Source of the DNA: Streptococcus sp. Marseille-Q5986
GTDB lineage: Bacteria; Bacillota; Bacilli; Lactobacillales; Streptococcaceae
DNA: 64,000 nucleotides
Reading direction: 5' to 3'
Assembly: GCF_946902915.1 (NCBI RefSeq)
Contig: NZ_CAMPPY010000002.1
Location: forward strand, 62,001 to 126,000
Part shown: one piece after another, positions 3,166 to 58,203 of the stretch
How the letters are laid out: each line of letters begins with the position of its first letter
Numbering within the stretch: the first letter of the stretch is position 1
Made by a program: the position numbers and the translations under genes
The notes under the pieces: generated by a model
Databases searched by the model: none
Told to the model about the DNA's origin: nothing
Seen by the model: only the letters and a program-made list of their open reading frames with translations

Positions 3166-3175
3166 TGATGGATAG

Positions 3176-21511: not shown

Positions 21512-22543
21512 ATGGTTTCTACTATTGGTATTGTTAGTTTATCTAGTGGCATTACCGGAGAGGATTTTGTCAAACACGAAGTGGACTTGGGTGTCCAACG
21601 TCTCAAGAATCTGGGACTCAATCCTATCTTTTTGCCCCATTCGTTAAAAGGCTTAGACTTTGTCAAGGTCCACCCTGAAGCGCGTGCGGAGGATTTAATG
21701 CAGGCCTTTTCTGATGATAGCATCGACATGATCCTATGTGCCATCGGTGGAGACGATACCTATCGTTTGTTGCCCTACCTTTTTGAAAATAACCAACTAG
21801 AAAAGGTTATCAAACAGAAGATTTTTCTTGGCTTCTCAGATACAACCATGAACCATCTCATGTTGCATAAACTAGGTGTTAAAACTTTTTATGGTCAATC
21901 CTTTTTGGCAGACGTTTGTGAATTGGATAAGGAAATGCTGACCTATAGCCTTCACTACTTTAAAGAATTGATCGAGACGGGAAGAATCTCAGAAATCCGC
22001 CCTAGTGACGTTTGGTATGAGGAACGAACTGACTTCAGTCCCAAGGCTCTGGGAACACCTCGTGTCAGTCATGCAAATACTGGTTTTGTCTTGTTGCAAG
22101 GAAATGCCAAATTCGAAGGGGAAGTCCTCGGTGGTTGCCTCGAATCTCTCTACGATATCTTTGACAATTCTCGATACGCAGATAGCACGGACCTCTGCCA
22201 AAAGTACAAACTCTTCCCTGACTTGTCAGACTGGGAAGGAAAAATCCTCTTGCTAGAAACAAGCGAAGAAAAACCTAAGCCAGAAGACTTCAAAAAGATG
22301 TTGCGGACTTTGAAGGACACTGGGATATTCGAGGTCATCAGCGGACTCTTGGTCGGGAAACCTATGGATGAAACTTTCTATGACGACTATAAAGAAGTAC
22401 TATTGGATATCATTGACAGCAATATCCCGATTGTCTATAATCTGAATGTCGGACACGCAACTCCAAGAGCTATTGTTCCCTTTGGCGTTCACGCCTATGT
22501 AGATGCACAGGAGCAAGTCATCCACTTTGACTATAACAAATAA
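21512..22543 (+). CDS. S66 family peptidase (LD-carboxypeptidase / MccF-like)
   Basis: 343-residue serine peptidase of family S66, whose members trim the terminal D-Ala of murein tetrapeptides (LdcA) or inactivate microcin C-type peptide-nucleotides (MccF). The nucleophile Ser is in KIFLGFSDTTMNHLML; the C-terminal Glu/His part is seen in LLLETSEEKPKP and NLNVGHATPRAIVPFGVHAY. The NSD-type loop and the extra middle segment with an Arg/Trp-rich VWYEERTDF are more MccF-like than LdcA-like, but this is a soft call. Strong ribosome site TAGGAGGATAAGAT. A hairpin ending in a T run closes the gene at 22545-22570. Confidence 0.88.
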   Translation: MVSTIGIVSLSSGITGEDFVKHEVDLGVQRLKNLGLNPIFLPHSLKGLDFVKVHPEARAEDLMQAFSDDSIDMILCAIGGDDTYRLLPYLFENNQLEKVIKQKIFLGFSDTTMNHLMLHKLGVKTFYGQSFLADVCELDKEMLTYSLHYFKELIETGRISEIRPSDVWYEERTDFSPKALGTPRVSHANTGFVLLQGNAKFEGEVLGGCLESLYDIFDNSRYADSTDLCQKYKLFPDLSDWEGKILLLETSEEKPKPEDFKKMLRTLKDTGIFEVISGLLVGKPMDETFYDDYKEVLLDIIDSNIPIVYNLNVGHATPRAIVPFGVHAYVDAQEQVIHFDYNK

Positions 22544-22598: not shown

Positions 22599-22632
22599 TA
22601 CTCACTAATGACCGCTTTTCCACTCACAATCA
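22599..22632 (+). repeat. Duplicated tag 3' end, distal copy (flank of the R-M cassette)
   Basis: 34 bases that match 24764-24797 at 30 positions, with an exact 17-base core (TTTTCCACTCACAATCA). On the minus strand it reads DCEWKSGH-stop in the tag frame, so it is the old end of tag. The REase stop codon TGA (22630-22632) comes from this repeat. Confidence 0.85.
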
Positions 22633-23475
22633 AATGTAGAATGTAATCTTTTTGCAATCAATCAGCTGGGCAGGATTATTAGGATTTTTAACTTTTACAT
22701 CTACAACAGATAGTTCTGGTACCTCTCCCATCAAAGTCAGTAATTGATCTTTATTACTAAATTTCTCAAAATGTTCAATAGATACTAGAGCAAACAAATT
22801 AAAATTTCTATCATGAACCGGCTCATAGATGTAATTAAAAACAGCAAATGGATTTTCCAATAACCACATACCTCGAATACATAAACTGGTAATTCCTAAA
22901 GGGGCTACTTTGTTTACGCGACCAAGCTCGTTTGTAGGAGCAAAATTTATATCTGGAATAGTCGCAATTCCTTCTTTTATTTTTTCAAATGTATCTTGAT
23001 AAACAACTTTATCTGCACAATAAATCGAGGCATCTATTAAAGCTAATTCTTTCAACTGTTGATTCTTCACCCATCCAATTGAATAGATAAAATCTTTTTC
23101 ACTCCAATTCTCAGCTTCTCGAGCAGACTTCTTCAATCGAACATCATCTACATATAATCTCGCCTTAGGACTTGAACTGTTAAGTTGCAAATGTGCATGC
23201 CGAGTTTCAATTTTCTTAATTTCAATCGCCGCCCCTTCTCTCAACATCGCATCAGGCGGATTCGAATCATTCCCCAAATAGGAAAATACCTGATTTACTT
23301 TCAAGAGCCTCTCTGTTTCGTCACTCTCCAAAATTGTGTCAGCAAAACTATCTACAACATATTGTTCAAGAGCATCTCCCATTGAATTGGCTCTATTGGA
23401 GCTAACATAAGTCTGTTTAAGATTAACTTCACGGCTTCTTATGACATTTATAACAGCAGTTAAAATATTCGCCAT
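22630..23475 (-). CDS. Type II restriction endonuclease, NgoPII family
   Basis: 281-residue REase resembling NgoPII, which cuts GGCC. The N-terminal MANILTAVINVIRSREVNLK and the catalytic PD-(D/E)XK stretch NPPDAMLREGAAIEIKKIET (PD, then E-I-K about 10 residues on) fit. The start is 1 base after the methyltransferase stop, and its ribosome site GGGAG sits in the end of that gene, so the two are co-expressed. Specificity GGCC is inferred from family, not shown. AT-rich relative to neighbours, consistent with transfer. Confidence 0.85.
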   Translation of the reverse strand: MANILTAVINVIRSREVNLKQTYVSSNRANSMGDALEQYVVDSFADTILESDETERLLKVNQVFSYLGNDSNPPDAMLREGAAIEIKKIETRHAHLQLNSSSPKARLYVDDVRLKKSAREAENWSEKDFIYSIGWVKNQQLKELALIDASIYCADKVVYQDTFEKIKEGIATIPDINFAPTNELGRVNKVAPLGITSLCIRGMWLLENPFAVFNYIYEPVHDRNFNLFALVSIEHFEKFSNKDQLLTLMGEVPELSVVDVKVKNPNNPAQLIDCKKITFYI

Positions 23476-23476
23476 A

Positions 23477-24628
23477 TTACTCCCTTTCTAACATTTCTTT
23501 ATATATAAAATCTGATATAGGTTGCATAATAGCTTTTCCTAATAGCACTGGAACAGCATTCCCAATCTGTTTGTAAATCTTATCAAGTCTTCCATTTTTC
23601 TTCATTTTCATATTATTTCCATCAGAAAATTCAAACCAATCAGGAAATGTTTGTATCCTTGCAATTTCTTTTATAGATAATCTCCTATTCACACTACCAT
23701 TGAATATCCATTTATTTTTGTCTACTTTAGTCATTGGTTGACCATCTGGATGCTGTGGAGCTTGACGACCCGAGGCTTGAATTGTGAAAGATTGCTCTGA
23801 CCAAGCTTTTTTTCGATTTCTACTCATATAAATTGTCGAGTATTCTCCCTCAAAATACGGACCAGGATTACTCCGTAAATCACCTATAGCATTTTCTAGC
23901 GTCACAAAAGGTAATTTTTCTTCTAATAAATTGATTTCATTAGTTTCGCCATGGCTAGGAGTAGGAAGTTGATAATAAAATCCATATTTCTTTTCAATCT
24001 TTTCTTTGTGAACACCAATCAAGAAAACACGTTCTCTTAATTGCGGAACTCCGTAATCTCTAGCATTTACTAAATGAGCAGTGACTGTATAGCCAGATGC
24101 TTCAAAATCTGCCACAATTTGTTTTAAAACCTCTCCTTTTCCAAGCGTCATCATTCCTTTGACATTTTCTGCTACAAAAAATTCTGGTTGAGTTTGGATA
24201 AGCGCTCTAATAAAATGAATGTATAAAAAGTTTCTAGGATCATCAATCAAACGTGGTCCAGCTTCTGAAAAACCTGGACAAGGAAACCCTCCAATCATCA
24301 TCTGACACTTTGGAAAATATGCAACTTTTCGGATATCTTTTTCATGTTGAATGATATGATTAGGAAAATTCAATTTATAACTCATATTCGCCTCTTTAAA
24401 CATATCATTTGTATAAACTGTATGAAAAATACTTTTAGAGCGATAGCGATTAAATTTTTCTTTATCTGAATTAAAATATTCTAAAGCTTTACTTTCCCCC
24501 ACGACGCTACTCAATCCGGCCAACTCTAAACCTAAATCTAATCCTCCGGCACCACTAAATAGCGACACAACATTTACTTTATCCTTACGATAATCAATAT
24601 TTTCTAGTAAACTGATAATCCTTCTCAT
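23477..24628 (-). CDS. DNA (cytosine-5) methyltransferase of the R-M pair
   Basis: Protects host DNA at the site cut by the partner REase. 383 residues read from ATG 24628. Motif I VVSLFSGAGGLDLGLELAG, motif IV GGFPCPGFSEAG with catalytic Cys, motif VI FFVAENVKGM, motif VIII LRERVFLIG, and the C-terminal motif X QIGNAVPVLLGKAIM are all present. No good ribosome site precedes ATG 24628; it may be coupled to the 58-residue ORF that overlaps its start. Followed one base later by the REase gene. Confidence 0.95.
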   Translation of the reverse strand: MRRIISLLENIDYRKDKVNVVSLFSGAGGLDLGLELAGLSSVVGESKALEYFNSDKEKFNRYRSKSIFHTVYTNDMFKEANMSYKLNFPNHIIQHEKDIRKVAYFPKCQMMIGGFPCPGFSEAGPRLIDDPRNFLYIHFIRALIQTQPEFFVAENVKGMMTLGKGEVLKQIVADFEASGYTVTAHLVNARDYGVPQLRERVFLIGVHKEKIEKKYGFYYQLPTPSHGETNEINLLEEKLPFVTLENAIGDLRSNPGPYFEGEYSTIYMSRNRKKAWSEQSFTIQASGRQAPQHPDGQPMTKVDKNKWIFNGSVNRRLSIKEIARIQTFPDWFEFSDGNNMKMKKNGRLDKIYKQIGNAVPVLLGKAIMQPISDFIYKEMLERE

Positions 24629-24770
24629 CAACTGGGACTGAAAGTTCTTCTTCTGAGATTTTTTTCAATAATATCTCTCTTACTTCATCAGCTGATAAAT
24701 TACGCATCTCTGGTTTAAATTTCCCACGTGATCGTTTCTCTTGCTTTACTTCTTCTATCTTTTTACTCAC
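24594..24770 (-). CDS. Small charged protein leading the R-M operon (58 aa)
   Basis: Reads from GTG 24770 with AAAGGAG at ideal spacing; the GTG shares a base with the tag stop (TAGTG). The product is lysine/glutamate rich (MSKKIEEVKQEKRSRGKFKP ... ADEVREILLKK) and overlaps the methyltransferase start by 35 bases. It could be a small accessory or control protein, or just a leader for coupled translation of the methyltransferase. I see no clear helix-turn-helix. A longer frame from GTG 24788 lies inside tag. Confidence 0.5.
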   Translation of the reverse strand: MSKKIEEVKQEKRSRGKFKPEMRNLSADEVREILLKKISEEELSVPVDEKDYQFTRKY

Positions 24771-28521: not shown

Positions 28522-28596
28522 TTAAGGGCACCTCTAAAAACCCCAAAAAATCGTAAAACATGAGATACTAGAGATAGAGGTAAGCTAGGCTAGGCG

Positions 28597-29621
28597 ATGA
28601 AATTTTTTATAGATGATGAACAAACACTATCAAAATTGAGTTCAATGGGCAATCCATTGGAAGGCTTAGATAAGGTAATGGATTGGGAGCAATTTAGACC
28701 GATTCTTGAGAATATTTTTAGAAACCATCAAAAGGCGGACGCCCTCCGCATGATTTTTTCATGATATTTAAGGTGCTCTTGATCCAACATCTCCATAATT
28801 TATCAGATGATACGATGGAATATCAACTCTTTCATCGTCTGTCATTTCGTCGTTTCACAGGTTGTGATGAATGTAAAGTCCATGATGCAAAAACCATCTG
28901 GTTGTATAGAGAACGCTTGACCAAATCAGGGAAAGAACAAGAATTATTTGAGCAATTTTATCTAACACTGGCAGAAAAAGGCTTATTAGCTCATCAGGGA
29001 CAGATAGCAGATGCCCCATTTGTAGAATCCCCTAAACAACGCAATACACGAGAAGAGAATCAACAAATCAAACAAGGAAAGATTCCGACAGATTGGAATA
29101 CAGCGAAGCGTTCTCAAAAAGATAGGGATACAGGATGGACTAGGGAGAACCAACTTACTTTGGTTATAAAAATCATATTATGCTCTTTGGAAATCAAATT
29201 AAAACCACGTCAACTCTATCTGCAACCTCAAAACAGTGTTTTGAGCAACCTGCGGCTAGCTTCCTAGTTTGCTTTTTGATTTTCATTGAATATTAGTATC
29301 GACCAAAAATCAAAACTAATCAAGAAATTTGAGATTACTTCTGCCAATGTTCACGATTCTCGCGTCTTGAAAGAGTTGTGTGAGAGTAAGGTGCCGATCT
29401 TTGATGATAGTGCTTTTCGAAATAAAACCTTGACTGATTTGGATAAGCGTATCAATCAGTCTATTTCTCGTATCCGCTGTCGTGTGGAACATGTTTTTGG
29501 TGTTATTAAAAATACGATGAAAGGAAGTCATTTTAGAGGAATTGGATTAGCGCGTACAAAAACGAATGTGATTTTGACAAATTTGTTGTATAATATCTGT
29601 CGTTTCGAACAAATCCAATGA
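28597..29621 (+). pseudogene. IS5-family transposase, three pieces
   Basis: Start ATG 28597 (MKFFIDDEQTLSKLSSMGNP) reaches a TGA at 28762-28764; the next piece (VLLIQHLHNLSDDTMEYQLF) continues in another frame to VIKIILCSLEIK; then a BOX repeat interrupts; then KSKLIKKFEITSANVHDSRV ... RCRVEHVFGVIKNTMKGSHF with the C-terminal DDE region (Glu of RVEHVFG). No full-length transposase can be made. Confidence 0.85.
29204..29293 (-). repeat. BOX element (A-C type) nested in the transposase gene
   Basis: Reverse complement of boxA: ends ...TTTGCTTTTTGATTTTCATT GAATATTA, with CAAAACAGTGTTTTGAGC. It splits the transposase frame, so it inserted after the IS did. Confidence 0.85.
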
Positions 29622-29787
29622 TTAGGGTTGAAAACATGGGGGAGTATACCCTAAAATAGAATAATCCTTAATTAGAGGTGAGAAAAAAAGAAAACCAGCT
29701 AAAATAGGTTCAAGTATTTCTTTACTTTGGGACTATTTTAGTTGATTTTTTTACTGTATTTTAATCTTCTGTTTTTTAGAGGCGCCC

Positions 29788-30963
29788 TTAAGAATTTTTA
29801 TTATTCCGTAAGTAAAATCTGTTAAATAACACAGCGTTGAATAATAATAACACAGAAAACAAATAAATACTGTATTTCATATCTTGGTTAAATAGCCAAC
29901 CTCCAATAAATCCTCCCAGAGTATCACCTATAAAATAGGAAGTTTGAGAAATGCCGTAGAAATATGAAATTTTTTCCTTTGGATAAATTGATAATTCCAT
30001 TAACTCTTGTGTAATTGATGATAGGTTTACAAAAAATACTCTAATAATCAATATAGTTATTACTAAATAATATTTTAAATGAAAACTAAATAATAAAGTA
30101 AGTATCGAAATCAATAACTCGGACAAAGTATAATATCCTTGTTTATGATTATCTACTTTTCTACTTGAAAATATGGAAGAGAAGTAAATTGTTAATAGAC
30201 TTAAAATAGTTAGAACAGGCCCAATAAAAACTTCTGATATTTCTTGACGTCTTAAAATAACGGGTAGATAAGGAGAAAATATACTAGCAATTAAACCTGA
30301 GAAGATACCAAAAAAGATTATTCTCTTTTTCATGTAATTACTAGATTCTAAGATTCTTTCTGCTCTTTCACTCTTATCAACAAAACTGTCAATTTTAGGA
30401 ATACAAAAGAAAGTTACTAAACATAGCATACTTGCCGAAGCTAAAACAATAGGATACGCCATACTATGAAAAAAATATATTAAGCAATATAGCAAAATGC
30501 CTGACAATATCCCTCCAATAGAAGTTCCTAAACTGCTGGAAAATCTTTTTAAGGAAATCGTAACTACTCTGTCTTTTTCTTTTCCTATTCCGACAGCCCA
30601 TGTTCGCAATAAAAGAATTATTGTTGCCGCTCCAATACCTGAGATAAGACCAGAGATTAATGATATCAACCAATCATTAGGAAATAATCTCAATAATAAA
30701 CCGATAGAATATAGTATTACTCCTATTCTTATCAGATTTCTTAAATTAAAATAATTGATTCTTCTGCCTAGAATTCCAGCAAACATTCCTGAAAAAGCCA
30801 TTGCTGAATATGAAATACTATAATTCAGTAAACTTCCATTCAAATCAAACCAAATTGAATGAACACTCCTAGAAAGTGACATTGATAAATAAAACAGAAT
30901 ATTAAAAACTAAAAACTGGAAGGAATCAGGATACTTTATAAATAGAGTTTTATATCTTTTCAT
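29788..30963 (-). CDS. MFS transporter (macrolide-efflux-like), probable peptide or small-molecule exporter
   Basis: 391-residue protein with about 12 membrane spans, starting MKRYKTLFIKYPDSFQFLVF. It has an RRINYFNLRNLIRIG A-like loop after span 2 and looks like the Mef-type branch of the major facilitator superfamily. The start overlaps the TPR gene stop (ATGA), so the two are coupled. The stop codon (29788-29790) is contributed by the IS terminal repeat, so a few original C-terminal residues may have been replaced. AT-rich (about 30% GC by eye), unlike the chromosomal neighbours. In a locus with a pheromone-type regulator an export role is likely; the substrate is unknown. Confidence 0.85.
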   Translation of the reverse strand: MKRYKTLFIKYPDSFQFLVFNILFYLSMSLSRSVHSIWFDLNGSLLNYSISYSAMAFSGMFAGILGRRINYFNLRNLIRIGVILYSIGLLLRLFPNDWLISLISGLISGIGAATIILLLRTWAVGIGKEKDRVVTISLKRFSSSLGTSIGGILSGILLYCLIYFFHSMAYPIVLASASMLCLVTFFCIPKIDSFVDKSERAERILESSNYMKKRIIFFGIFSGLIASIFSPYLPVILRRQEISEVFIGPVLTILSLLTIYFSSIFSSRKVDNHKQGYYTLSELLISILTLLFSFHLKYYLVITILIIRVFFVNLSSITQELMELSIYPKEKISYFYGISQTSYFIGDTLGGFIGGWLFNQDMKYSIYLFSVLLLFNAVLFNRFYLRNNKNS

Positions 30964-31847
30964 TCGGCATTCTCTATAATTTCTTTAATACTTTCTGAGT
31001 CAGGAAAAATTCTGTGCCCAATCTCTATAGTTCGTTTAAATTCAGCCAACCTGTCTAAATTATAAAAAATTTCTGCCGAAATTAAAATATAATTTAGTAA
31101 ATCTTCATCATTCAGCTCATACAATTTATTATTCAATAAAGGTAAATTATTGTATGCTTCATTGTAAAGATTAAACTCCGTTAGTTCATAAGTTATATCG
31201 TACCAAAAAGAAAACGTTCTATTTGACAATTCAAAAGCTTTACTAAAATATTCTAATGATTTCGCAGTACCTCTAAAATAGTAGCCTAGGAGCGAATATT
31301 TTTCAGCAAAATTATTAGAATGATGTGGCATACTTTCTATAAATTCTAGAAAATTTTCGACATCTGTCTCTAAAAGATTTCTAGAATATTCTAGATAGTA
31401 CTCAATAAAAAGCGGATCCATATTTTTCAAAATATAAAAAGTTTTCCGAGAATTACTATTGTCACCTATAGTGACATAGCACTGATATAAATTAAACCAA
31501 AGTACACTTTCATGAAGAACAACCGAAGAACTAGAGGTATCTAATTGTTTTATTTGATTTAAACAACGTTTTAATAATATGATTGTTTCCTCTACTTTGC
31601 CCGTTTTAAATAATAGTAGGGCATACCCATTTCGATTAAAAATACTCTCTAATGTCACTTTATCTTTAATTAAATCATACGCTTCATTCAATAATACAAT
31701 AGCTTTTTGATCATCTTGAAGGTATTTAGGATGATGGCGTGCATAGAGCATTGCAAGCATATAGTTTGCTGCCACAATATGGTCAACTTTTCCATCATGT
31801 TTGTATAGGTTGTAGTAGTATTCTGCTTTTTCTGTTTCCAATAACAT
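30960..31847 (-). CDS. TPR-repeat protein, C-terminal part of a split gene (295 aa from ATG; frame open from 32027)
   Basis: All-helical protein with tetratricopeptide-like repeats (MLLETEKAEYYYNLYKHDGK; AIVLLNEAYDLIKDK; ILLKRCLNQIKQL; SLEYFSKAFELSN). The frame is open upstream to 32027 (IRYVYEDIFLNQSAEELHEL), and those residues look like real protein, so the ATG at 31847 is an internal Met. One extra A in a run of nine separates it from the frame of the 32005-32391 ORF; with eight As the two make one protein of about 475 residues. It ends in ATGA overlap with the MFS gene. Probably works with the MFS protein and the peptides upstream; no enzyme motif is visible. Confidence 0.75.
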   Translation of the reverse strand: MLLETEKAEYYYNLYKHDGKVDHIVAANYMLAMLYARHHPKYLQDDQKAIVLLNEAYDLIKDKVTLESIFNRNGYALLLFKTGKVEETIILLKRCLNQIKQLDTSSSSVVLHESVLWFNLYQCYVTIGDNSNSRKTFYILKNMDPLFIEYYLEYSRNLLETDVENFLEFIESMPHHSNNFAEKYSLLGYYFRGTAKSLEYFSKAFELSNRTFSFWYDITYELTEFNLYNEAYNNLPLLNNKLYELNDEDLLNYILISAEIFYNLDRLAEFKRTIEIGHRIFPDSESIKEIIENAE

Positions 31848-32004
31848 ATTATAAGTTGTAGCTAATTTGAAAACATCTCGTCTATTATCATATTTATTTA
31901 CTAAGTAAGTAAATATTTTTTTAGAAGCCCATAAATCACCTGCTGATAAATATTTTAATCCTAATTCATGTAATTCCTCTGCTGATTGATTGAGAAAGAT
32001 ATCT

Positions 32005-32391
32005 TCATATACATAACGTATTTTTTTTTATTGGAGTAATTTTAATATTTATTTTTACATGACTTGATAGTTCCTTTAATATGAATTGATCACCTTCTGA
32101 TAAATAACTTAAATCACTCAGCTCAATGTCTAAAATTTTTAAATGTTCTCTAAGTTGATTTACAATTTTCTTCATGATGTCCTCAACTCTAGGTAACATC
32201 GAATACCTTAACTGGCTATCATAACTTTGACGAGCAGTTAAACTTAGCTCACCTCCTCTAGGTAACTCTGGAAAAATTAAAAATTTAGCTTCTTCGCTAC
32301 CCATTTTTGAGAAATTAAAATCCATTTTCTTTAAAATTTCTCTTGTAATTCCAAAACTAGTTACATTTACTTCAGAAATTAATATTTGCAT
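32005..32391 (-). CDS. N-terminal part of the split TPR protein (128 aa), unrecognised domain
   Basis: Starts at ATG 32391 (MQILISEVNVTSFGITREIL) with a good site, TTTGGAGAAGAAA; an ATG at 32409 has none. Contains FLIFPELPRGGELSLTARQ and RYSMLPRVEDIMKKIVN. I do not recognise the domain. After KITPIKK the frame crosses the A9 run (32021-32029) and ends five codons later (NTLCI). Either frameshift mutation, phase variation or transcript slippage is possible; with one A fewer it fuses to the TPR region. About 250 bases of AT-rich sequence upstream (32410-32657) hold likely promoter elements (TATAAT near 32560) and no other gene. Confidence 0.6.
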   Translation of the reverse strand: MQILISEVNVTSFGITREILKKMDFNFSKMGSEEAKFLIFPELPRGGELSLTARQSYDSQLRYSMLPRVEDIMKKIVNQLREHLKILDIELSDLSYLSEGDQFILKELSSHVKINIKITPIKKNTLCI

Positions 32392-32601
32392 TTTCTTCTC
32401 CAAATACATAAAATTCTTCTTTTTTCAAAATATTCATACTCAATACAATAATTATCCAGATTTACTGAAATCTAACGAATTCTGATCAATTTTTCGTTTT
32501 CAACTAAGTAGCTTAAAAGTAAATCAGATGAGTATATCATATAATATAAATTATACTTGTCTATTATTTTTAGAATAAATATTATAAAATCTAATAAAAA
32601 A

Positions 32602-32634
32602 TTAAGAATCTAAGATTTAATCTTAGATTCTTAA
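32602..32634 (-). terminator. Strong terminator between the micro-peptide gene and the TPR gene
   Basis: Perfect 15-bp stem TTAAGAATCTAAGAT / ATCTTAGATTCTTAA with a 3-base loop. On the minus strand it is followed by TTTTTT. It lies 24 bases after the micro-peptide stop and would make that peptide the main product, with reduced read-through to the TPR-MFS genes. Confidence 0.88.
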
Positions 32635-32657
32635 TAAAAACAAATACATACTTGTAC

Positions 32658-32732
32658 TTATTTATCACCGCCATTGTAACCTAGTACAAAACGAATTTTC
32701 TTAGGCTTTAAGCTCTTCTTCTTAAACTTCAA
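32658..32732 (-). CDS. 24-residue cationic peptide, putative secreted or modified peptide precursor
   Basis: Starts at TTG 32732 behind GAGGGAG (8-base spacing). The product is lysine-rich at the N-terminus (MKFKKKSLKPKKIRF) and ends VLGYNGGDK. There is no signal peptide and no cysteine. A TATAAT at about 32748 lies just upstream and a strong terminator lies just behind. The pattern of tiny gene, terminator, then larger genes and an exporter is typical for ribosomally made peptide precursors. The function is inferred from context only. Confidence 0.5.
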   Translation of the reverse strand: MKFKKKSLKPKKIRFVLGYNGGDK

Positions 32733-32828
32733 TTTAATTTCTCCCTCTATTATAAAATTTAAGATTTTTATCCGGTGAGGAGAAATCTTATCAAACCTCA
32801 TAATGTCATTATAGATTAGTCTGAACAG

Positions 32829-32963
32829 TTAGAGAACTTTTCCATTCGCAGGACCAGGATCAATCCCTCTAGCCATCTTATGAACTTGAGGTGTTCTCGT
32901 AAGTCCCAACAGAATTAAGCCAATAGCTAATACAGCAACTATTTTCCTAAACAAACTTCTCAT
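32829..32963 (-). CDS. Phr-like pheromone precursor (44 aa)
   Basis: Starts at ATG 32963 with AGGAGAGGTAT upstream. Basic N-terminus MRSLFRK, hydrophobic core IVAVLAIGLILLGL, then TRTPQVHKMAR and the C-terminal GIDPGPANGKVL. This is the architecture of Phr/PapR-type exported peptides whose C-terminal 5-10 residues return through the oligopeptide permease and bind an RRNPP regulator; pneumococcal PhrA also ends in a glycine-containing polar segment. It follows the regulator gene, in the same direction, behind a near-consensus promoter. The mature form is not known. Confidence 0.72.
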   Translation of the reverse strand: MRSLFRKIVAVLAIGLILLGLTRTPQVHKMARGIDPGPANGKVL

Positions 32964-32991
32964 ATACCTCTCCTTTTGTTTTCTTGCATTT

Positions 32992-33020
32992 ATTTTATCA
33001 CTTCAAAATTAACTTGTCAA
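32992..33020 (-). promoter_or_regulatory. Near-consensus promoter of the Phr-like gene
   Basis: Minus strand TTGACA (33015-33020), exactly 17 bases, TAAAAT (32992-32997). Just upstream, ATACAAAAACGTAT (about 33056-33069) has inverted ends and could be part of a regulator site. Confidence 0.75.
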
Positions 33021-33082
33021 GTATTTTATAATCTTTTTTTATTATTTTTTTATATATACGTTTTTGTATCTTGATTGAATTT

Positions 33083-33107
33083 AAAAAATGGTGCTCACTT
33101 GAACACC
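33083..33107 (-). terminator. Terminator of the RRNPP regulator gene
   Basis: Minus strand GGTGTTCAAGTGAGCACC then ATTTTTT, 8 bases after the regulator stop. Confidence 0.8.
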
Positions 33108-33114
33108 GTATGCA

Positions 33115-33981
33115 TTATTCTGTTATATCTGCAATGTAATGCTCAACTTTCAGAGTCATTGACATGTTCTCCTCAAGTTTGTATAGGAAATATGCTGTCT
33201 CAAAATATTCTTTCACTGAACTTTTAGAAGAAAAATTTTCACTTACATTTCCCATTAATAAATACAAATCAGCCAAAAGATAATTCGTTCTGTAAGCCTT
33301 ACATTGTTTTATCGTAGCTGTGATTTTAGTAATAGCTTCTTCAATATTTTTCTGTAACCATAGATAACGACAAACGTTGTAGTTAAACTTAATAGATAGC
33401 TCTAACTCTTCGATTGTACTCAAATTGAGTTGATTTACTTGATACTCTAGTTTTTCACGAATTTTATTGAAACGGTCTAAATCTCCAATATCATAGTAAA
33501 AATTGAATAGGGTGTTTGAAACTTGGAGATAGTTCAAATCAGATACACTTAACTGTGATAATACCCCCTCTAATCGTACAATCGCATCTTCTTTCTGTCC
33601 GTAAAAATAAAAATCTATCAGAGATTTTATCCATTCCATGTAGATTTTATCTGCTAAAGATAGGCGGTGAGCTTTCACATTCTCCAATTCATATATATAT
33701 TTCAAAGACTCATAATTGCGATTTGTAATAAAGGTCTGTGCTAATTTCTTAAATTCTGATAACTCCTCAACTTTCTCTACAACCTGCTCATCAAAAAAAT
33801 AATCCATACTGACTTTTAACTTCTTAGCAAGGGCATGCAGGAAATCTGCTCCAGGGGTAAACTCTCCGCTCTCTAATCGACTGATTTGCCCCTGTTTACA
33901 GATACCTTCAGCTAGTTCTCGCTGAGACATTTTTAATTCTTTCCGTCTATTTTTTAATCTTGTTGCTAATAGTGTACCCAC
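33115..33981 (-). CDS. RRNPP-family transcriptional regulator (PlcR/TprA-like)
   Basis: 288 residues. The N-terminal XRE-type helix-turn-helix (LKNRRKELKMSQRELAEGIC KQGQISRLESGEFTP, residues 9-43) precedes a TPR region that extends to the C-terminus and would bind a peptide. Starts at GTG 33981 with AGAGGAAGA upstream; the ATG eight bases earlier is out of frame. Predicted to respond to the Phr-like peptide encoded right behind it and to control that gene and perhaps the micro-peptide/TPR/MFS genes. Similar to the proteins annotated as PlcR-like in pneumococcus (TprA group). Confidence 0.88.
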   Translation of the reverse strand: MGTLLATRLKNRRKELKMSQRELAEGICKQGQISRLESGEFTPGADFLHALAKKLKVSMDYFFDEQVVEKVEELSEFKKLAQTFITNRNYESLKYIYELENVKAHRLSLADKIYMEWIKSLIDFYFYGQKEDAIVRLEGVLSQLSVSDLNYLQVSNTLFNFYYDIGDLDRFNKIREKLEYQVNQLNLSTIEELELSIKFNYNVCRYLWLQKNIEEAITKITATIKQCKAYRTNYLLADLYLLMGNVSENFSSKSSVKEYFETAYFLYKLEENMSMTLKVEHYIADITE

Positions 33982-34106
33982 GTTTGCATCTTCCTCTTCT
34001 ATTTGATTTCAGTTTTAATTGTAACATGATTAAATCTAAAATTCAAATCAATGATTCAAAAGATGCAAATTGTAGATAAAATATATTTTTATAATTCATC
34101 GTCAAC

Positions 34107-34207
34107 TTATTTACTTTCCATTTCTTCATTCAAACGCTTTATAAACTTATCCAGCTTCAACGCCACTTTTCATACCTATCACCTTCTAATTCCAACTGTT
34201 CCCCTAG
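34107..34207 (-). pseudogene. Short decayed coding remnant
   Basis: The minus strand shows EELGEQLELEGDRYEKWR, then after a frame change LDKFIKRLNEEMESK-stop at 34107. Composition looks protein-like but there is no start codon. It abuts the second direct repeat. The rest of 33982-34210 holds the regulator promoter region and nothing else I can name. Confidence 0.3.
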
Positions 34208-34209
34208 TT

Positions 34210-34397
34210 CTTCCAGCCCCTTTCTGTATCTATTTTCCTAGCAATTGATTAGTGCTATTATACCATATTTCAAATAGGACAGAAAAATCAAGCGCCACAT
34301 AGACTCCAAATCCCTCCACATAGACAAAGTCCCTTGCCAGGGGGCATAAAATAGTGGTATACTCAATAAAAATCAAAGAGCAAACTAGAAAGCTAGG
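34210..34397. repeat. Direct repeat R2, right flank of the island
   Basis: Second copy of 28016-28203, including a copy of the mutL promoter and boxA start. Here the boxA continues into a fuller BOX element. Confidence 0.85.
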
Positions 34398-46209: not shown

Positions 46210-47319
46210 ATGGCACAAGACTTTGGTGACGAAATCGGCGATATTCTACTCAGGGAGATGAAAAATGCCACAAAACAAGCTCTTTCTAAAGGATATCAAA
46301 AGCACAAACAGGCTCTTGCAGAAAAACAAGCCCAATTCTATAAACAGCACGGAATCAGCCTCGGCATGGATGCTGCACAAGCAAACCAATATGCTGCGCG
46401 TCAGGCAACCAAAGAACTCGCCATCCTTTCTTTCGGCTCTTATACAGACAGCGCATATTTCGCTAAACTCTGCCAAGAAAACGGAACGAATCTGATGTCT
46501 TTTACAGACAACCAAGGAAACGGATACATCCAATTTGCTAAAGATGACCTACCTAAACTCCTCGCAAACATCCCTCAATTCAGCACACTGATGACCGCGC
46601 TCTATGAGCAACAGTTCATTAAGCGTATAAAACCCATCGAACCCACTCCTGAACTTTTTAACAATCTCAGTCTGATAAAAAAGTTACCAGAACTTCCATC
46701 TCTCGACACAGCGGTACATGACGATCCCCTTAACCGCACTGCACACATAGCAGAAAAAGTCTCTTTTGCTAAAGAAACAGCGAAAAACTTTGAAGAGTTC
46801 AAAGAACTTCTCGCCCAAGACAACCTTGGACTAACAACCAGCGTTAAAGGCGAACATCTCTTCTACGAAGCTCGCCTTGGAAAAGACGGAAAACTACTCC
46901 CCTACAGTCACGAAAAAAGAGACTGGTCAGTCAGCGCCGAGACACTAAAAAATAAATATGACATTGATGCCACTATGGACACTCTAGAACAACACTTCAC
47001 AGAAGATAGAGATAACAATAGCGATGGTTCTTTAGATGTCAAAGGCGAAACAGCCGATATTAACCAAGGAATAGCATCTCACGATGGAATGGATACCAAT
47101 GCTACAACGCTCAGAATAGAACGTGAGGGAGTAAATACCGATATTCCATCGTCCGTGACCAAAGCTAGCACAGCCACGAAAACCACAGATAAAGTCCCAC
47201 CCTATTCTTTGGAATCGCAAGCTAAAGCTGCCCGTCAAGCAGCCAAAGAACTCGCCAAAGAACGTCAGGTAAAAGAAAGAATCACGGATATTTCCGACAA
47301 ACTTAACCCCGTTCGCTAA
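46210..47319 (+). CDS. PcfB/DUF3801-like conjugation accessory protein with shared C-terminal tail
   Basis: 369 residues. Lysine/glutamine-rich helical start (LREMKNATKQALSKGYQKHK), a segment like DUF3801/PcfB (YFAKLCQENGTNLMSFTDNQ), a relaxase-tail-like block (NFEEFKELLAQDNLGLTTSV; LFYEARLGKDGKLLPYS), and at 333-348 the tail SLESQAKAARQAAKEL. It directly precedes the coupling ATPase gene, the same order as pcfB-pcfC, so it probably adapts substrates to VirD4. The family link is moderate; the tail is shared with three other proteins of the element. Confidence 0.6.
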   Translation: MAQDFGDEIGDILLREMKNATKQALSKGYQKHKQALAEKQAQFYKQHGISLGMDAAQANQYAARQATKELAILSFGSYTDSAYFAKLCQENGTNLMSFTDNQGNGYIQFAKDDLPKLLANIPQFSTLMTALYEQQFIKRIKPIEPTPELFNNLSLIKKLPELPSLDTAVHDDPLNRTAHIAEKVSFAKETAKNFEEFKELLAQDNLGLTTSVKGEHLFYEARLGKDGKLLPYSHEKRDWSVSAETLKNKYDIDATMDTLEQHFTEDRDNNSDGSLDVKGETADINQGIASHDGMDTNATTLRIEREGVNTDIPSSVTKASTATKTTDKVPPYSLESQAKAARQAAKELAKERQVKERITDISDKLNPVR

Positions 47320-47350
47320 CCAACACTATGTCACAAAGAAGGGGGATATT

Positions 47351-49306
47351 ATGTCCAGCCAAAAAACAAGCACGCATCCAGAAACCAGTAAAAAACTGGC
47401 AGTTTCTGCCATTGCAACACTCATTGTCTCTATCATTGTCTTTTATCTAGGGAATCGCTACACGGAAACGCTCCTCTCCTATGACGGAGATGTTAGCCAA
47501 CATACATCCCAAGCATTCACAGAAATGTTTCCTCTCATCTGGAAAACACCATTTCACCTCGATACCCATACGGCATCACTGCTCGTAGGACTTACCCTCT
47601 GCATTCTTCTCTGGCTTGCATGGGTGTACTATATACAAAACATGGAAGTGCTCCGTGTAGGCGAAGAAAATGGTTCAGCCAGATGGGGCACAAAAAAAGA
47701 AGGCAAACAATTCCTTGATACCACAAGGAAAGATAACAATCTTCTCTTCACAGAAAACTTTGGGCTGGCGCTCTCACGTCCCACATTTAACCAAGAACTT
47801 GATCGAAATCTCAATGTTCTTGTCGTTGGCGGTTCAGGTTCAGGAAAAACCCGTAACTATGTGATCCCCAACACCTGCCAACTCAATACAAACTATTTTA
47901 TTACTGACCCCAAAGGAACACTCTTAAAAGATACAGGATTCTTATTCACCGATCACGGATACCAAGTGAAATCGTTCAATACCATCAACTTGAACGAATC
48001 CATGCACTACAATCCGCTAAAATACGTCACAACAGACACAGATATTCTATCTTTTGTGAACTGCTATATCATGAACACCAACGGGGATGGTAAATCAAGT
48101 GACCCATTTTGGGAAAACTCTGAAAAAATGCTCTACACAGCCCTCATTGCCCTACTTCGAGACTGGTTTCCCAAAGAAGACTACAACCTCTCTAGCCTCT
48201 TAACATTACTATCCTTGGCAGAAGCTAGTGAAAATGACGAAAACTTTCAATCACCTTTAGATTTAATCTTCCTACAAATTGAAGAAGGCAAACAATACAT
48301 CAACACCAGTACGTCACAATCATCTCCTTTACCTACACCGAGTGGGTTGTCCCGAGAGTTCGCCCAACAACAAAATGCCAGTTCGTGGGCATGGGAAGAT
48401 TCCCCCTTCGTCAGAAACACAGACGGTGTAAAACCAGCAGAAAAAGGGGGACTATCTCCTGATGAAGATTTTGCTTTAATGAACTACAAAAACTTTAAGG
48501 TTGCGGCTGGAAAAACCCTCAAATCAATTATCATCTCCTGTAATGTACGGCTTGCCCCTATCGCAACTACTGGTGTACGAGAACTACTGACAAAAGACGA
48601 TATGGAGTTAGATACTCTAGGGGATAAAAATACGAAAAGTGTGATTTTCGGCATCCTTTCAGACACAGATAAAACACTCTCTTTTCTTTTTGCCATTATG
48701 ATGTGGCAATGCATAGATCAGCTTTGTCGAAAAGCTCTCACCGACTATGATGGGCGACTGCCCACACCCGTTCATTTCATCTTCGATGAGTTCGCCAACA
48801 TCGGTACTATTCCACAAATTGAAGAAACAATCGCTGTCACACGTTCACGCAACATTGGAATCAGCATCATCTTACAGTCGATTGCGCAACTCGAATCCAA
48901 ATATGATAAAAAAGCCAAAACCATTATTGACTGTTGCGACACAACGCTATTTTTAGGGGGAAAATCACCCTCCACCAATAAAGAAATATCTGAAATGATT
49001 GGTAAACAAACCATCCGTCAAAAAACCTACAGTTCCTCTAGTGGGCAATCCTCTAGTTCTTCAAAAAACACCCAGATAAGTGGGCGTGACCTTATTGATG
49101 CGGCAGAAATAGGCAAAATGTCACGAAAAAAAGCCATCTTGTTGATAGCAGGAACAAACCCACTCATGGATACCAAATATGACCTTAGAAAACATCCCAG
49201 ATATTGTCATATTGTAGACAAACGCAACCCCAACGCACTTCACAATACAAGTTTTGACTTTGTTCGCTATATGGAAGAAAAAAAAGACTATCTTATTTGG
49301 CAATAA
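47351..49306 (+). CDS. virD4: VirD4-type coupling protein (T4CP)
   Basis: 651-residue membrane ATPase that brings the relaxase-DNA complex and protein substrates to the secretion channel. Two N-terminal spans (AVSAIATLIVSIIVFYLG; SLLVGLTLCILLWLAWVYYI), Walker A LVVGGSGSGKTRNYVIPN, Walker B VHFIFDEFANIGTIPQIEE, and the VirD4 stretch SRNIGISIILQSIAQLESKY. Similar to PcfC/TcpA-VirD4 of Gram-positive elements. Ribosome site AGAAGGGGG. Confidence 0.95.
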   Translation: MSSQKTSTHPETSKKLAVSAIATLIVSIIVFYLGNRYTETLLSYDGDVSQHTSQAFTEMFPLIWKTPFHLDTHTASLLVGLTLCILLWLAWVYYIQNMEVLRVGEENGSARWGTKKEGKQFLDTTRKDNNLLFTENFGLALSRPTFNQELDRNLNVLVVGGSGSGKTRNYVIPNTCQLNTNYFITDPKGTLLKDTGFLFTDHGYQVKSFNTINLNESMHYNPLKYVTTDTDILSFVNCYIMNTNGDGKSSDPFWENSEKMLYTALIALLRDWFPKEDYNLSSLLTLLSLAEASENDENFQSPLDLIFLQIEEGKQYINTSTSQSSPLPTPSGLSREFAQQQNASSWAWEDSPFVRNTDGVKPAEKGGLSPDEDFALMNYKNFKVAAGKTLKSIIISCNVRLAPIATTGVRELLTKDDMELDTLGDKNTKSVIFGILSDTDKTLSFLFAIMMWQCIDQLCRKALTDYDGRLPTPVHFIFDEFANIGTIPQIEETIAVTRSRNIGISIILQSIAQLESKYDKKAKTIIDCCDTTLFLGGKSPSTNKEISEMIGKQTIRQKTYSSSSGQSSSSSKNTQISGRDLIDAAEIGKMSRKKAILLIAGTNPLMDTKYDLRKHPRYCHIVDKRNPNALHNTSFDFVRYMEEKKDYLIWQ

Positions 49307-49370
49307 AATGCCTCTCAACCGTGTAATGTTTGTACAGGAATAAAAAGCATGAGGAAAGGAGACTATTTTT

Positions 49371-49574
49371 ATGGAAGCACTTGTCCGACTAGCAGTTCAG
49401 CCTATCGCATATTGTGGAAATGCTATCTTGCTGATCGGATTGATTTATCTCGGATTTCAACTAAAAGATGGGATGCAAGGCGGTGGTGGAGAACAACGCA
49501 AAGCCATTGGCATGATCGCCGCAGGCGCTGTGATTACCGCCTTTGCTATCCTCTACGGATTTACTGGCTTTTAA
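49371..49574 (+). CDS. VirB2-like small membrane protein 1 (67 aa)
   Basis: Two hydrophobic spans around a central loop with GMQGGGGEQRKAIGM. Starts MEALVRLAVQPIAYCGNAIL at ATG 49371 (GGAAAGGAG upstream). Size, two-span shape and place between VirD4 and PrgI/VirB4 fit the pilin-like/Maff2-type proteins of Gram-positive type IV systems. It shares the GMQGGGG loop with the next gene. Confidence 0.75.
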   Translation: MEALVRLAVQPIAYCGNAILLIGLIYLGFQLKDGMQGGGGEQRKAIGMIAAGAVITAFAILYGFTGF

Positions 49575-49616
49575 CCCAAAACTAACAACAAACACAATAA
49601 TAAGGAGAAAATTCTT

Positions 49617-49838
49617 ATGCTTAACAACGTTATTACCCTACTGACCCAAGGCATCACGTTCCTCGGTGGCGTTCTGATCGTTTTTGGACTGATTAACCTA
49701 GGCATGACCATTAAAGATGGGATGCAAGGCGGTGGCGGTCAGCTCTCAGGCGCAATCGCCATGATTGTTGGCGGCGCTATCGTCATTGGTGCAGCAGTCT
49801 ACTTCGGTTCTCTCAATACAGGGTGGGCAAATGTCTAA
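49617..49838 (+). CDS. VirB2-like small membrane protein 2 (73 aa)
   Basis: Paralogue of the preceding protein: MLNNVITLLTQGITFLGGVL, then KDGMQGGGGQLSGAIAMIVG and a second span. Ribosome site AAGGAGAAAATTCTT. Probably a second channel subunit or alternative pilin-like component. Confidence 0.75.
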   Translation: MLNNVITLLTQGITFLGGVLIVFGLINLGMTIKDGMQGGGGQLSGAIAMIVGGAIVIGAAVYFGSLNTGWANV

Positions 49839-49857
49839 AGAAAGAAGGTGATTATTT

Positions 49858-50298
49858 ATGCTATCCGTTGTCGTTCATAAAAACATCGCCGAATATCAGC
49901 CAAAAGTAGTTGGAAAACTAACCATGCGCACCCTCATCTCTTTAGTGGGTGCGCTAGGAAGCTCCGTCCTTACAGCACTATACATCTATTTTGTACTTGG
50001 CTGGAATGTTGGAGACTGCATGATATTCATCTATGCCGTCTCTCTTCCCTTTTGGCTGTGTGGCTTCTTTCGCCCCAAAGGAATGCCCTTTGAACAATTC
50101 CTACCTTTATGGATAAAAGCGAAGCTCAGCACTGACCGCATTTTCTATACCCCATCACTGTATCTATCTGGACTTGTGCGCACACCTGAACACACGAGCC
50201 GAAAGAAAGGAAAAATCTATGACAAGCAATATCGAAAAGAACGAGGACTTAAAGGAATCGAAGCCTACGCTCCCAGAGCACACCGCGTCATTATCTGA
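49858..50298 (+). CDS. PrgI-like membrane protein
   Basis: 146 residues beginning MLSVVVHKNIAEYQPKVVGK, two adjacent membrane spans (LISLVGALGSSVLTALYIYF; CMIFIYAVSLPFWLCGFF) and a basic cytoplasmic tail. The N-terminal I-x-EY-x-P-K pattern and the pair of spans match PrgI, which lies before VirB4 in Gram-positive systems. Overlaps the VirB4 start by 80 bases. Confidence 0.85.
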   Translation: MLSVVVHKNIAEYQPKVVGKLTMRTLISLVGALGSSVLTALYIYFVLGWNVGDCMIFIYAVSLPFWLCGFFRPKGMPFEQFLPLWIKAKLSTDRIFYTPSLYLSGLVRTPEHTSRKKGKIYDKQYRKERGLKGIEAYAPRAHRVII

Positions 50299-52966: not shown

Positions 52967-53002
52967 TAGTAATCAACATCAACCTGAAAGGATGGTATCT
53001 AC

Positions 53003-54643: not shown

Positions 54644-54666
54644 TCAATATAAGAAAGGTACTTGTT

Positions 54667-55514: not shown

Positions 55515-55547
55515 ATTACTTCTCATTAAAGAAAGGAGTGAACTTCT

Positions 55548-56516: not shown

Positions 56517-56589
56517 ATTATAATAAATAACCGTTCTCTTACTAAAATAGAAGTACTCTATAACAACTATAAAAGAGGAGTGATACTTT

Positions 56590-58134: not shown

Positions 58135-58203
58135 GCTCTCACACCAACACAATGGGGGGGATATTCCCCCCCATTAACATGAACCTAATAAGGAAGGCTT
58201 CCG

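What the first reader, a model, noticed from the sequence alone, without database searches (positions are those of the whole stretch)
29788..33981. Candidate new peptide-signalling/peptide-export locus: RRNPP regulator, Phr-like peptide, 24-residue cationic peptide, split TPR protein, MFS exporter
Seen: five co-oriented genes on AT-rich DNA, two of them (44 and 24 codons) very small. The regulator has an XRE+TPR layout; the next gene encodes a secreted-peptide precursor ending GIDPGPANGKVL behind a TTGACA-17-TAAAAT promoter; the 24-residue peptide ends VLGYNGGDK and is followed by a 15-bp perfect terminator; the TPR and MFS genes are ATGA-coupled. Known: RRNPP regulators sense re-imported Phr/PapR peptides and often control peptide or bacteriocin genes. 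Inference: a quorum-sensing circuit that switches on a small cationic peptide exported by the MFS protein. The TPR protein has an N-terminal domain I do not recognise.
Basis: partly seen in the sequence, partly recalled or inferred. Interest (0 to 1): 0.85.

Follow-up and report, generated by a model that had tools for sequence, protein, structure and literature searches.

The report
Quorum-switched small peptide export cassette
A mobile set of five bacterial genes appears to use a known chemical-signal switch to turn on production and export of a tiny positively charged peptide with the help of a partner protein that belongs to no catalogued family, and relatives of the peptide, partner and exporter sit together in very distant bacteria.

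Summary
Five co-oriented genes lie on the minus strand at 29788-33981. The regulator belongs to the PlcR/TprA branch of RRNPP, and its 44-residue neighbour ends in the published PapR/TprA-like motif (GIDPGPAN), so the quorum-sensing half is a known kind. The other half appears undescribed: a 24-residue cationic peptide, a ~480-residue TPR protein that matches no family-level Pfam, NCBIfam or PADLOC model, and an MFS exporter. Streptococcus sp. DD10 carries the same cassette at another site with the TPR gene intact; here that gene is frameshifted in an A-run. Among 12 core loci in distant genera (Pantoea, Klebsiella, Listeria, Streptobacillus, Priestia, Exiguobacterium and others), all 12 have an exporter within three genes of the TPR gene. 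In 11 of 12 a short Lys-rich peptide precedes it, with a Tyr at residue 19 in 10 of 12 peptide sequences. In Priestia and Exiguobacterium a PlcR-type regulator and a PapR-like peptide also sit beside the cassette. Most likely it is a quorum-controlled secreted peptide (bacteriocin/RiPP-like) with the acidic TPR protein as its intracellular partner or maturase. Product, modification and activity are inferred. In this strain the system is probably impaired.

The parts
33115..33981 (-). XRE + TPR transcriptional regulator, PlcR/TprA branch of RRNPP
   Evidence: HTH_3; phmmer to PlcR 2qfc E 1e-13 over residues 6-271; its DD10 counterpart is 59-60% identical to regulators on three Streptococcus plasmids
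33090..33107 (-). terminator-like hairpin after the regulator gene
32992..33020 (-). sigma-70-like promoter TTGACA-17-TAAAAT with TG before the second hexamer, upstream of the 44-aa ORF
   Evidence: 11/12 consensus matches, best site of the region; DD10 differs at one position of the first hexamer
32829..32963 (-). 44-aa PapR/Phr-like pheromone precursor, C-terminus ARGIDPGPANGKVL
   Evidence: C-terminal 13 codons conserved with mostly synonymous changes in DD10; same motif as published PapR/TprA-like AIP precursors
32658..32732 (-). 24-aa cationic peptide MKFKKKSLKPKKIRFVLGYNGGDK (TTG start), putative structural gene of the exported product
   Evidence: 23/24 identical in DD10; peptide family upstream of distant TPR homologues
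32601..32635 (-). 16-pair stem plus T-run between peptide and TPR genes: intrinsic terminator/attenuator
30960..32409 (-). TPR protein gene, frameshifted in this strain (open pieces 32005-32409 and 30960-31847); intact 482-aa copy in DD10
   Evidence: family alignments A1/A3
29788..30963 (-). MFS transporter, putative exporter/self-protection protein
   Evidence: Pfam MFS_1 E 4.9e-23; DD10 MFS 25-33% identical over 343-390 residues to exporters beside TPR homologues in 6 other loci

Best explanation
A mobile, quorum-controlled cassette that makes and exports a small ribosomal peptide. The PlcR/TprA-type regulator binds the re-imported C-terminal piece of the 44-aa precursor and switches the promoter in front of that precursor. 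Read-through transcribes the 24-aa peptide; a terminator just behind it lets the peptide message exceed that of the TPR and MFS genes. The Lys-rich first ~18 residues are held in the acidic TPR superhelix of the partner protein, whose N-terminal domain looks like the remnant of a P-loop NTPase. The conserved Tyr19 and the variable tail behind it are presented for processing or modification, and the product leaves through the MFS (in relatives sometimes ABC) exporter, most likely as a bacteriocin-like agent. Shown: gene content, conservation, peptide family, near-fixed Tyr position, opposite charges, exporter linkage, PlcR/PapR linkage in three genera. Inferred: regulator-peptide response, peptide binding by the TPR protein, processing, export, antibacterial activity. 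In this strain the frameshift probably abolishes or lowers output.
For: Whole cassette in DD10 at another site, 90.9% identical over 4450 aligned positions with one sharp edge at the MFS stop. TPR relatives in 19 plasmid records at E <= 0.01 and in 16 of 398 Bacilli genomes at E <= 1e-6 (the own genome and three of the core type, 12 with longer proteins of which five loci were inspected). Exporter within three genes of the TPR gene in 12 of 12 core loci, directly next to it in 9. Peptide in 11 of 12, 603 vs null maximum 324. Tyr at residue 19 in 10 of 12 sequences, 18 and 20 in the others. Exiguobacterium has three identical tandem copies. Peptides +4 to +8, TPR parts -11 to -25 in 12 of 12 (no control set). 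PlcR-type regulators (phmmer to 2qfc E 1.1e-16 and 7e-36, nearly full length) and PapR-like peptides beside the Priestia and Exiguobacterium cassettes. TprA/PhrA is known to drive a lantibiotic cluster (reference title seen; passages).
Against: No product, modification or activity is shown. No conserved Cys/His set and no known peptide-modifying enzyme is in the streptococcal cassette. The Acinetobacter locus L009 has a TPR gene and MFS but no such peptide. The AlphaFold model is poor (mean pLDDT 57.4, N-terminal region mostly below 50), so a peptide groove is not shown. The TPR gene is frameshifted here. No shared operator was found between pheromone and peptide promoters in Priestia or Exiguobacterium. 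Regulator linkage is seen in 3 of the 12 core loci. Tyr position depends on the start codon chosen (Pantoea and Klebsiella peptides have a second ATG two codons in).
Confidence: 0.6

Rival explanations
1. The 24-aa peptide is itself a second signal (pheromone) or host-directed peptide rather than an antibacterial; the TPR protein is its intracellular receptor or handler and MFS its exporter.
For: TPR proteins are classic peptide receptors in RRNPP systems (passages of PMC9765709); relatives occur in Gram-negatives without obvious immunity genes (annotation tables).
Against: No DNA-binding domain was found in the TPR protein; a dedicated pheromone gene already exists in the locus; relatives carry S9-type hydrolases, an O-methyltransferase or a ThiF enzyme, typical of product biosynthesis.
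Confidence: 0.15
2. The peptide is a substrate consumed to make a small Tyr-derived molecule (as PqqA is for PQQ), which the MFS exports.
For: Tyr at a near-fixed position, very short precursor; S9-type hydrolases that could release a fragment; O-methyltransferase in Bacillus, Priestia and Exiguobacterium loci.
Against: No redox or radical-SAM enzyme is annotated beside it in the loci opened; the streptococcal cassette has no tailoring enzyme besides, perhaps, the TPR protein; three identical tandem copies in Exiguobacterium fit a dosage-limited peptide product as well.
Confidence: 0.12
3. Toxin-antitoxin-like pair: cationic peptide neutralised by the acidic TPR protein, MFS incidental.
For: Opposite charges; presence on plasmids.
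Against: An exporter lies within three genes in 12 of 12 core loci; PADLOC gave no match to the TPR protein.
Confidence: 0.06
4. Chance short ORF or leader/attenuator peptide without function of its own.
For: It is short, starts with TTG and is followed by a terminator.
Against: Sequence family across distant genera with Tyr at a near-fixed position; 23/24 identity in DD10 with one synonymous and one replacement codon change.
Confidence: 0.03

Closest known systems
TprA/PhrA and TprA2/PhrA2 of S. pneumoniae; PapR/TprA-like of S. thermophilus and S. salivarius (PlcR branch of RRNPP)
   Same: XRE+TPR regulator, adjacent secreted precursor with the active peptide at its C-terminus, drives an adjacent peptide-product operon
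   Different: Downstream module here is not a lanthipeptide operon but a 24-aa peptide, an unfamilied TPR protein and an MFS exporter
Quorum-controlled RaS-RiPP loci of streptococci (streptide, streptosactin, tryglysin)
   Same: RRNPP regulator plus pheromone next to a small precursor peptide with processing genes (passages of PMC12445099; tryglysin from a listing)
   Different: No radical-SAM enzyme; regulator is PlcR-type, not Rgg; the partner is a TPR protein
Microcin C-like peptide-nucleotide systems (MccA/MccB/MccC)
   Same: Very short precursor and MFS export (recalled); the Exiguobacterium relative has a ThiF protein and its peptide ends in Asn
   Different: No ThiF enzyme in the streptococcal cassette and the peptide ends in Lys; ThiF was seen in 1 of 12 core loci
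Leaderless bacteriocins
   Same: Short cationic peptide without signal sequence or double-glycine leader (by eye)
   Different: Dedicated TPR partner and MFS exporter; no sequence relation known to me (recalled, no call)
PqqA/PQQ-type precursor peptides
   Same: About 20-25 residues, key Tyr near the C-terminus (recalled)
   Different: No PqqD/radical-SAM machinery seen in the core loci; a PqqD-like/membrane-protease partner was noted by eye only in the more distant Paenibacillus-like and Streptomyces loci

Membership tests
RRNPP, PlcR/TprA branch | N-terminal XRE-type HTH | tested here: met
   HTH_3 E 4.5e-13, residues 9-62
RRNPP, PlcR/TprA branch | full-length similarity to PlcR including the TPR part | tested here: met
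   phmmer to 2qfc residues 6-271, E 1e-13. Note: PMC9765709 (passage) reports no PlcR systems in Lactobacillales by its profile, whereas PMC12445099 places TprA in the PlcR family
RRNPP, PlcR/TprA branch | adjacent secreted precursor with C-terminal signal | tested here: met
   44-aa ORF with hydrophobic N-terminus by eye; C-terminus conserved in DD10 and in published PapR/TprA-like precursors
RRNPP, PlcR/TprA branch | response of the regulator to the peptide | not testable with these tools
   needs a culture experiment
RiPP (any class) | short precursor with conserved leader and variable core | tested here: met
   Lys-rich first 17-19 residues, Tyr near 19, tails of 1-10 residues in 12 sequences
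RiPP (any class) | known class-defining modifying enzyme | tested here: not met
   none in the streptococcal cassette by Pfam/NCBIfam; ThiF, O-methyltransferase or S9 only in some relatives
RiPP (any class) | modified product | not testable with these tools
   needs mass spectrometry
Microcin C-like | MccB-type ThiF enzyme in the cluster | tested here: not met
   absent from the five genes of the window (Pfam) and from the matching DD10 genes; present in Exiguobacterium only
Microcin C-like | precursor with C-terminal Asn | tested here: not met
   window and DD10 peptides end in Lys; 4 of 12 core sequences end in Asn
Leaderless bacteriocin | antibacterial activity of the unmodified peptide | not testable with these tools
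   no assay possible

The most novel reading that the evidence does not exclude
A new class of ribosomal peptide natural product spread by mobile elements across Bacillota, Pseudomonadota and Fusobacteriota: an 18-residue basic leader, a Tyr at position 19 and a 1-10 residue tail are recognised by a dedicated TPR protein derived from a P-loop NTPase, which measures off the Tyr and is itself the maturase or the scaffold for optional S9, O-methyltransferase and ThiF enzymes, with MFS or ABC export. In Bacillota it has repeatedly been placed under PlcR/PapR-type quorum sensing. The longer-protein relatives in Paenibacillus-like bacteria, rhizobia, Vibrio and Streptomyces would make it a large superfamily.
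Probability: 0.33. Interest if true: 0.88.

Novelty: new variant of a known kind. Interest (0 to 1): 0.72.

Why it matters
If right, a quorum-controlled peptide locus leads to an overlooked peptide family that annotation misses, because the precursors are only about 20 codons long and the partner protein is just called 'tetratricopeptide repeat protein' or 'hypothetical protein'. The signature (Lys-rich ORF with Tyr near residue 19, directly upstream of a TPR protein carrying FNRNG, close to an exporter) makes it searchable. The intact DD10 copy and the Priestia and Exiguobacterium plasmid copies make the product directly testable, with known PlcR/PapR logic as the inducer. It also poses a defined question: what a degenerate NTPase-TPR protein does to a 20-residue peptide.

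Tried and rejected
Structure: AlphaFold2 of the DD10 TPR protein (alignment of three sequences: DD10 and the two window pieces) gave mean pLDDT 57.4 and pTM 0.36, with most of residues 1-136 below 50. I judged it too weak for a fold search and ran none.

Searching with the whole TPR family was swamped by ordinary TPR repeats (234 of 398 genomes matched; the listed matches outside the own genome lie on the repeat part). The family-specific fragment A2 was used instead. A full-length DD10 query in 395 genomes of the order matched only the own genome (DD10 was evidently not drawn). Three viral-contig scans found no relative, and no phage record matched, so a phage origin was dropped. No plasmid record matched the window DNA, and the Klebsiella locus had no match in E. 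coli genomes. The one genome-contig scan, with the MFS protein, found only DD10.

Literature: seven searches aimed at the TPR/peptide/exporter module and one on microcin C with TPR gave no listing that I recognised as describing it; only 12 of 32 papers were listed. A review of ThiF-type RiPPs (PMC12250964, listing) was not opened. One lead, the 'tetratricopeptide repeat protein' BipC of biphenomycin biosynthesis (PMC12707348, passages), is an arginase-like enzyme and unrelated. For PMC12445099, PMC9765709, PMC10075063, PMC5436883 and PMC12707348 I saw passages returned by term searches, not whole texts; other papers were seen only as search listings. A PlcR-box search in the Priestia and Exiguobacterium loci gave scattered partial matches and no clear site shared by pheromone and peptide promoters. 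PHROGs was not run.

A first coding of the 24-aa ORF was off by one base; its codon counts for that ORF are void and were redone. The frame was likewise wrong. The leave-group-out test used reference peptides picked by eye, so it is partly circular; it was given 17 loci that had a candidate (L009 without one, and L072 and L077 with one, were not entered), and in Listeria the ORF scored was an in-frame longer version. The position-defined test picks loci by the TPR gene only and scores across locus groups, but its 450-nt reach was chosen after I had seen where the peptides lie. A first null with unequal ORF numbers (78 +/- 37, maximum 189 of 300) was replaced by the count-matched one. In L009 one Lys-rich 18-codon ORF without a ribosome-binding site overlaps the MFS start; it was not counted.


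Full report
WHAT IS THERE. The locus is on the minus strand of a Streptococcus genome (G000, 2.1 Mb) between mutL (named by eye) and a LytTR gene. In transcription order it holds a PlcR-type regulator (33981-33115), a 44-aa secreted-type ORF (32963-32829) behind the best promoter-like site of the region, a 24-aa Lys-rich ORF starting with TTG (32732-32658), a 16-pair terminator (32635-32601), a TPR gene and an ATGA-coupled MFS gene (to 29788). G+C is 27-29% from the MFS gene to the peptide and 32% over the regulator, against 44-48% further out on both sides. An IS5-type element with a disrupted transposase lies directly behind the MFS stop.

THE TPR GENE IS FRAMESHIFTED HERE. Its two open pieces are in different frames, and the break lies in a run of nine A. 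Streptococcus sp. DD10 (L003) has one open 482-aa gene. Whether the window copy is dead, phase-variable, rescued by slippage or a sequencing error cannot be told from one sequence.

CONSERVATION IN STREPTOCOCCUS. In 284 Streptococcus genomes the N-terminal piece of the TPR protein was found in 2, one of them the own genome. The other, G210, is probably DD10: its contig has the same length. DD10 holds all five genes in the same order at 90.9% identity over 4450 aligned positions. One edge is exactly at the MFS stop; the flanking genes differ (an ABC-F-like gene and a birA-like gene, named by eye). The cassette therefore moves. In the 44-aa ORF, the last 13 codons differ by 4 synonymous and 1 replacement change, the first 31 by 3 synonymous and 14 replacement changes. 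The 24-aa ORF has one synonymous and one replacement codon change. The terminator keeps its stem through one two-sided change and folds well in both (z -5.2 with 16 pairs, z -8.0 with 14 pairs).

THE SIGNALLING HALF IS A KNOWN KIND. The regulator matches PlcR (2qfc) from residue 6 to 271 at E 1e-13. Its DD10 counterpart is 59-60% identical to regulators on three Streptococcus plasmids, two of them from S. salivarius. PMC12445099 (passages) lists PapR/TprA-like precursors ending NGIDPGPANIMVK and SGRIDPGPAHSMVS, and reports mass-spectrometric detection of the C-terminal peptide of the first in strain JIM8232. The present precursor ends ARGIDPGPANGKVL. TprA/PhrA is published as controlling a lantibiotic cluster (title in the reference list seen; passages of PMC5436883). 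On the contrary side, PMC9765709 (passage) found no PlcR systems in Lactobacillales with its profile; the papers name this branch differently. Of the plasmid relatives opened, one regulator lies a few kilobases from salivaricin M genes (L014; no DPGPA-type precursor found there), and one sits by a kinase/ABC operon with a precursor ending VVDPGAANWVSKYY (L015).

THE OTHER HALF LOOKS NEW. The intact DD10 TPR protein has no Pfam match above cut-off, no NCBIfam match near cut-off and no PADLOC family; some relatives do pass generic TPR models. tblastn of the DD10 protein found 19 plasmid records at E <= 0.01. Neighbourhoods of the main ones and of two unnamed Bacilli genomes give 12 core loci: Streptococcus, Pantoea soli, Pantoea agglomerans, Klebsiella pneumoniae, Acinetobacter lwoffii, Listeria seeligeri, Streptobacillus moniliformis, Bacillus badius, Priestia megaterium, Exiguobacterium alkaliphilum, G1288 and G1180. 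Left out of this count: a frame-broken copy at a contig edge (L068), a partial second Acinetobacter copy (L081), near-duplicate records that were not opened, and the Nonomuraea locus (L076), which carries no annotation. Eleven of the 12 TPR proteins (Exiguobacterium not in that alignment) share 21-30% identity to the reference row, with invariant residues at S...R of the SLT...QIRF stretch and FNRNG. In all 12 an exporter lies within three genes: MFS in 10, ABC in Streptobacillus and G1180. It is directly next to the TPR gene in 9; one gene lies between in Streptobacillus and two in Bacillus and Priestia. The DD10 MFS is 25-33% identical over 343-390 residues to those of six other loci (G1288, Listeria, Acinetobacter, both Pantoea, Klebsiella), weakly similar to the Priestia and Bacillus ones, and has no match at E <= 1 to the Exiguobacterium one. 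S9-type or other alpha/beta hydrolases follow in 6 of 12 (annotation; Pfam on four of them). An O-methyltransferase occurs in 3 (Bacillus, Priestia, Exiguobacterium) and a ThiF protein in 1 (Exiguobacterium).

THE PEPTIDE FAMILY. Searching the DNA just upstream of the TPR genes for short ORFs with a ribosome-binding site gave, in 11 of 12 loci, a Lys-rich peptide of 20-29 residues: for example MKMIKRKPAAKRVDFSVMYNR (Klebsiella), MKTVKITKKVVKASNAVMYSGN (Priestia), and three identical copies of MKTVVIKKNSVRAKVVLGYN (Exiguobacterium). Acinetobacter L009 has none that fits. A position-defined test, taking every such ORF within 450 nt upstream and scoring only across locus groups, gave 603 against 259 +/- 18 (maximum 324 of 500) for equal numbers of ORFs drawn elsewhere in the same loci. 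In a leave-group-out ranking the candidate came first in 14 of the 17 loci entered; the three misses (ranks 3, 2, 4) are in the more distant Paenibacillus-like group (its limits are told under Tried and rejected). The key regularity is that a Tyr stands at residue 19 in 10 of 12 sequences (DD10 counted as well as the window), at 18 in Listeria and at 20 in Streptobacillus, followed by 1-10 variable residues (the first Tyr is counted where a second follows; the Pantoea and Klebsiella genes have a second ATG two codons in). Net charges are +4 to +8, while the TPR parts are acidic in 12 of 12 (-11 to -25); acidic proteins are common, and no control set was run.

WHAT THE TPR PROTEIN MAY BE. Longer relatives in Mesorhizobium, Agrobacterium, Vibrio and Paenibacillus-like genomes carry a larger N-terminal domain. 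The Vibrio one shows GPDGAGK and LIIDEFEH, which I read as Walker A and B motifs; Pfam AAA_16 matches only at E 0.012, below cut-off. [quoted passage not shown] I read the core N-terminus as a degenerate P-loop NTPase domain without its nucleotide-binding half. The structure prediction could not confirm this. Short Lys-rich ORFs also precede the longer relatives in the five Paenibacillus-like loci opened and in Mesorhizobium, Vibrio and Streptomyces (the last as part of a longer ORF); too little upstream DNA was held for Agrobacterium. A PqqD/M50-like membrane protein (named by eye; no Pfam match in the two tested) stands beside them in the Paenibacillus-like and Streptomyces loci.

QUORUM SENSING RECURS. 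Beside the Priestia cassette lies a 294-aa HTH protein (31% identity to the window regulator over 143 residues; PlcR 2qfc E 1.1e-16 over residues 2-279) and an ORF ending MDLPYQH. Beside the Exiguobacterium cassette lies a 296-aa HTH protein (25% over 279 residues; PlcR 2qfc E 7e-36 over residues 1-287) and a divergent ORF with a hydrophobic N-terminus ending SDLPYEV. PapR heptapeptides of the B. cereus group include ADLPFEF (abstract of PMC6568020, listed); SDLPFEH occurs in three papers of that listing by their term counts. So PlcR/PapR-type pairs sit beside this module in three of the 12 core loci, in three genera. No shared operator was found.

HOW IT PROBABLY WORKS. See the best explanation. 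Shown steps are gene order, conservation, peptide family, Tyr position, charges and linkage. Inferred steps are the regulator's response, peptide binding by the TPR protein, processing or modification near Tyr19, export by MFS, biological activity, and activation (rather than release from repression) by the pheromone.

VERDICT. The peptide/TPR/exporter module is widely but sporadically distributed (among 75 genomes of the genus of G1180 and 23 of the family of G1288 only the centre genome itself matched), and it is what deserves follow-up.

Noticed in passing
L069-L073 (unnamed Bacilli genomes): Group of peptides such as MKKVIVKKTEAVKLTTTASLYGEPCGPVWA (several different ones in tandem in L069) upstream of a ~412-aa PqqD/M50-like membrane protein (named by eye) and a ~730-aa TPR protein; looks like a separate, possibly large precursor family.
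   Followed up: partly
L075:3636-3931 and 1481-3475: Exiguobacterium plasmid: three identical tandem peptide genes, with a divergent ThiF, 84-aa protein and O-methyltransferase operon; the peptide ends in Asn as in microcin C-like systems.
   Followed up: partly
L012 (Bacillus badius plasmid): The peptide/TPR/O-methyltransferase/MFS set lies between two Tn3-family transposase genes, suggesting a transposon-borne cassette.
   Followed up: no
window 28527-29787: IS5-type element with interrupted transposase and TTAA at both ends, inserted directly behind the MFS stop codon.
   Followed up: partly
window 22630-24631: NgoPII-type restriction endonuclease and C5 cytosine methyltransferase pair.
   Followed up: no
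window 46210-62913: Conjugation module: TraG/VirD4-type coupling protein and a type I topoisomerase confirmed by Pfam; VirB4-like ATPase and CHAP-type lysozyme named by eye. A second C5 methyltransferase is at 63024-63875.
   Followed up: no
window 12992-14889: P-type cation ATPase gene in two pieces (14410-14889 and 12992-14362), apparently interrupted (the first piece named by eye).
   Followed up: no
window 8199-9464: Reverse transcriptase gene, group II intron-like (by eye), in two ORFs; the larger one matches RVT_1.
   Followed up: no
window 21512-22543: S66 LD-carboxypeptidase family gene; the family includes microcin C immunity proteins (MccF, recalled); no link to the cassette shown.
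   Followed up: no
L003:2661-2873 and window about 34030-34224: Small ORF (70 aa) upstream of the regulator in DD10, with a degraded counterpart in the window (by eye) inside the shared cassette; function unknown.
   Followed up: no
L015:7124-7270: PapR-like precursor ending VVDPGAANWVSKYY next to a related regulator on an S. salivarius plasmid, upstream of a kinase/ABC operon.
   Followed up: no
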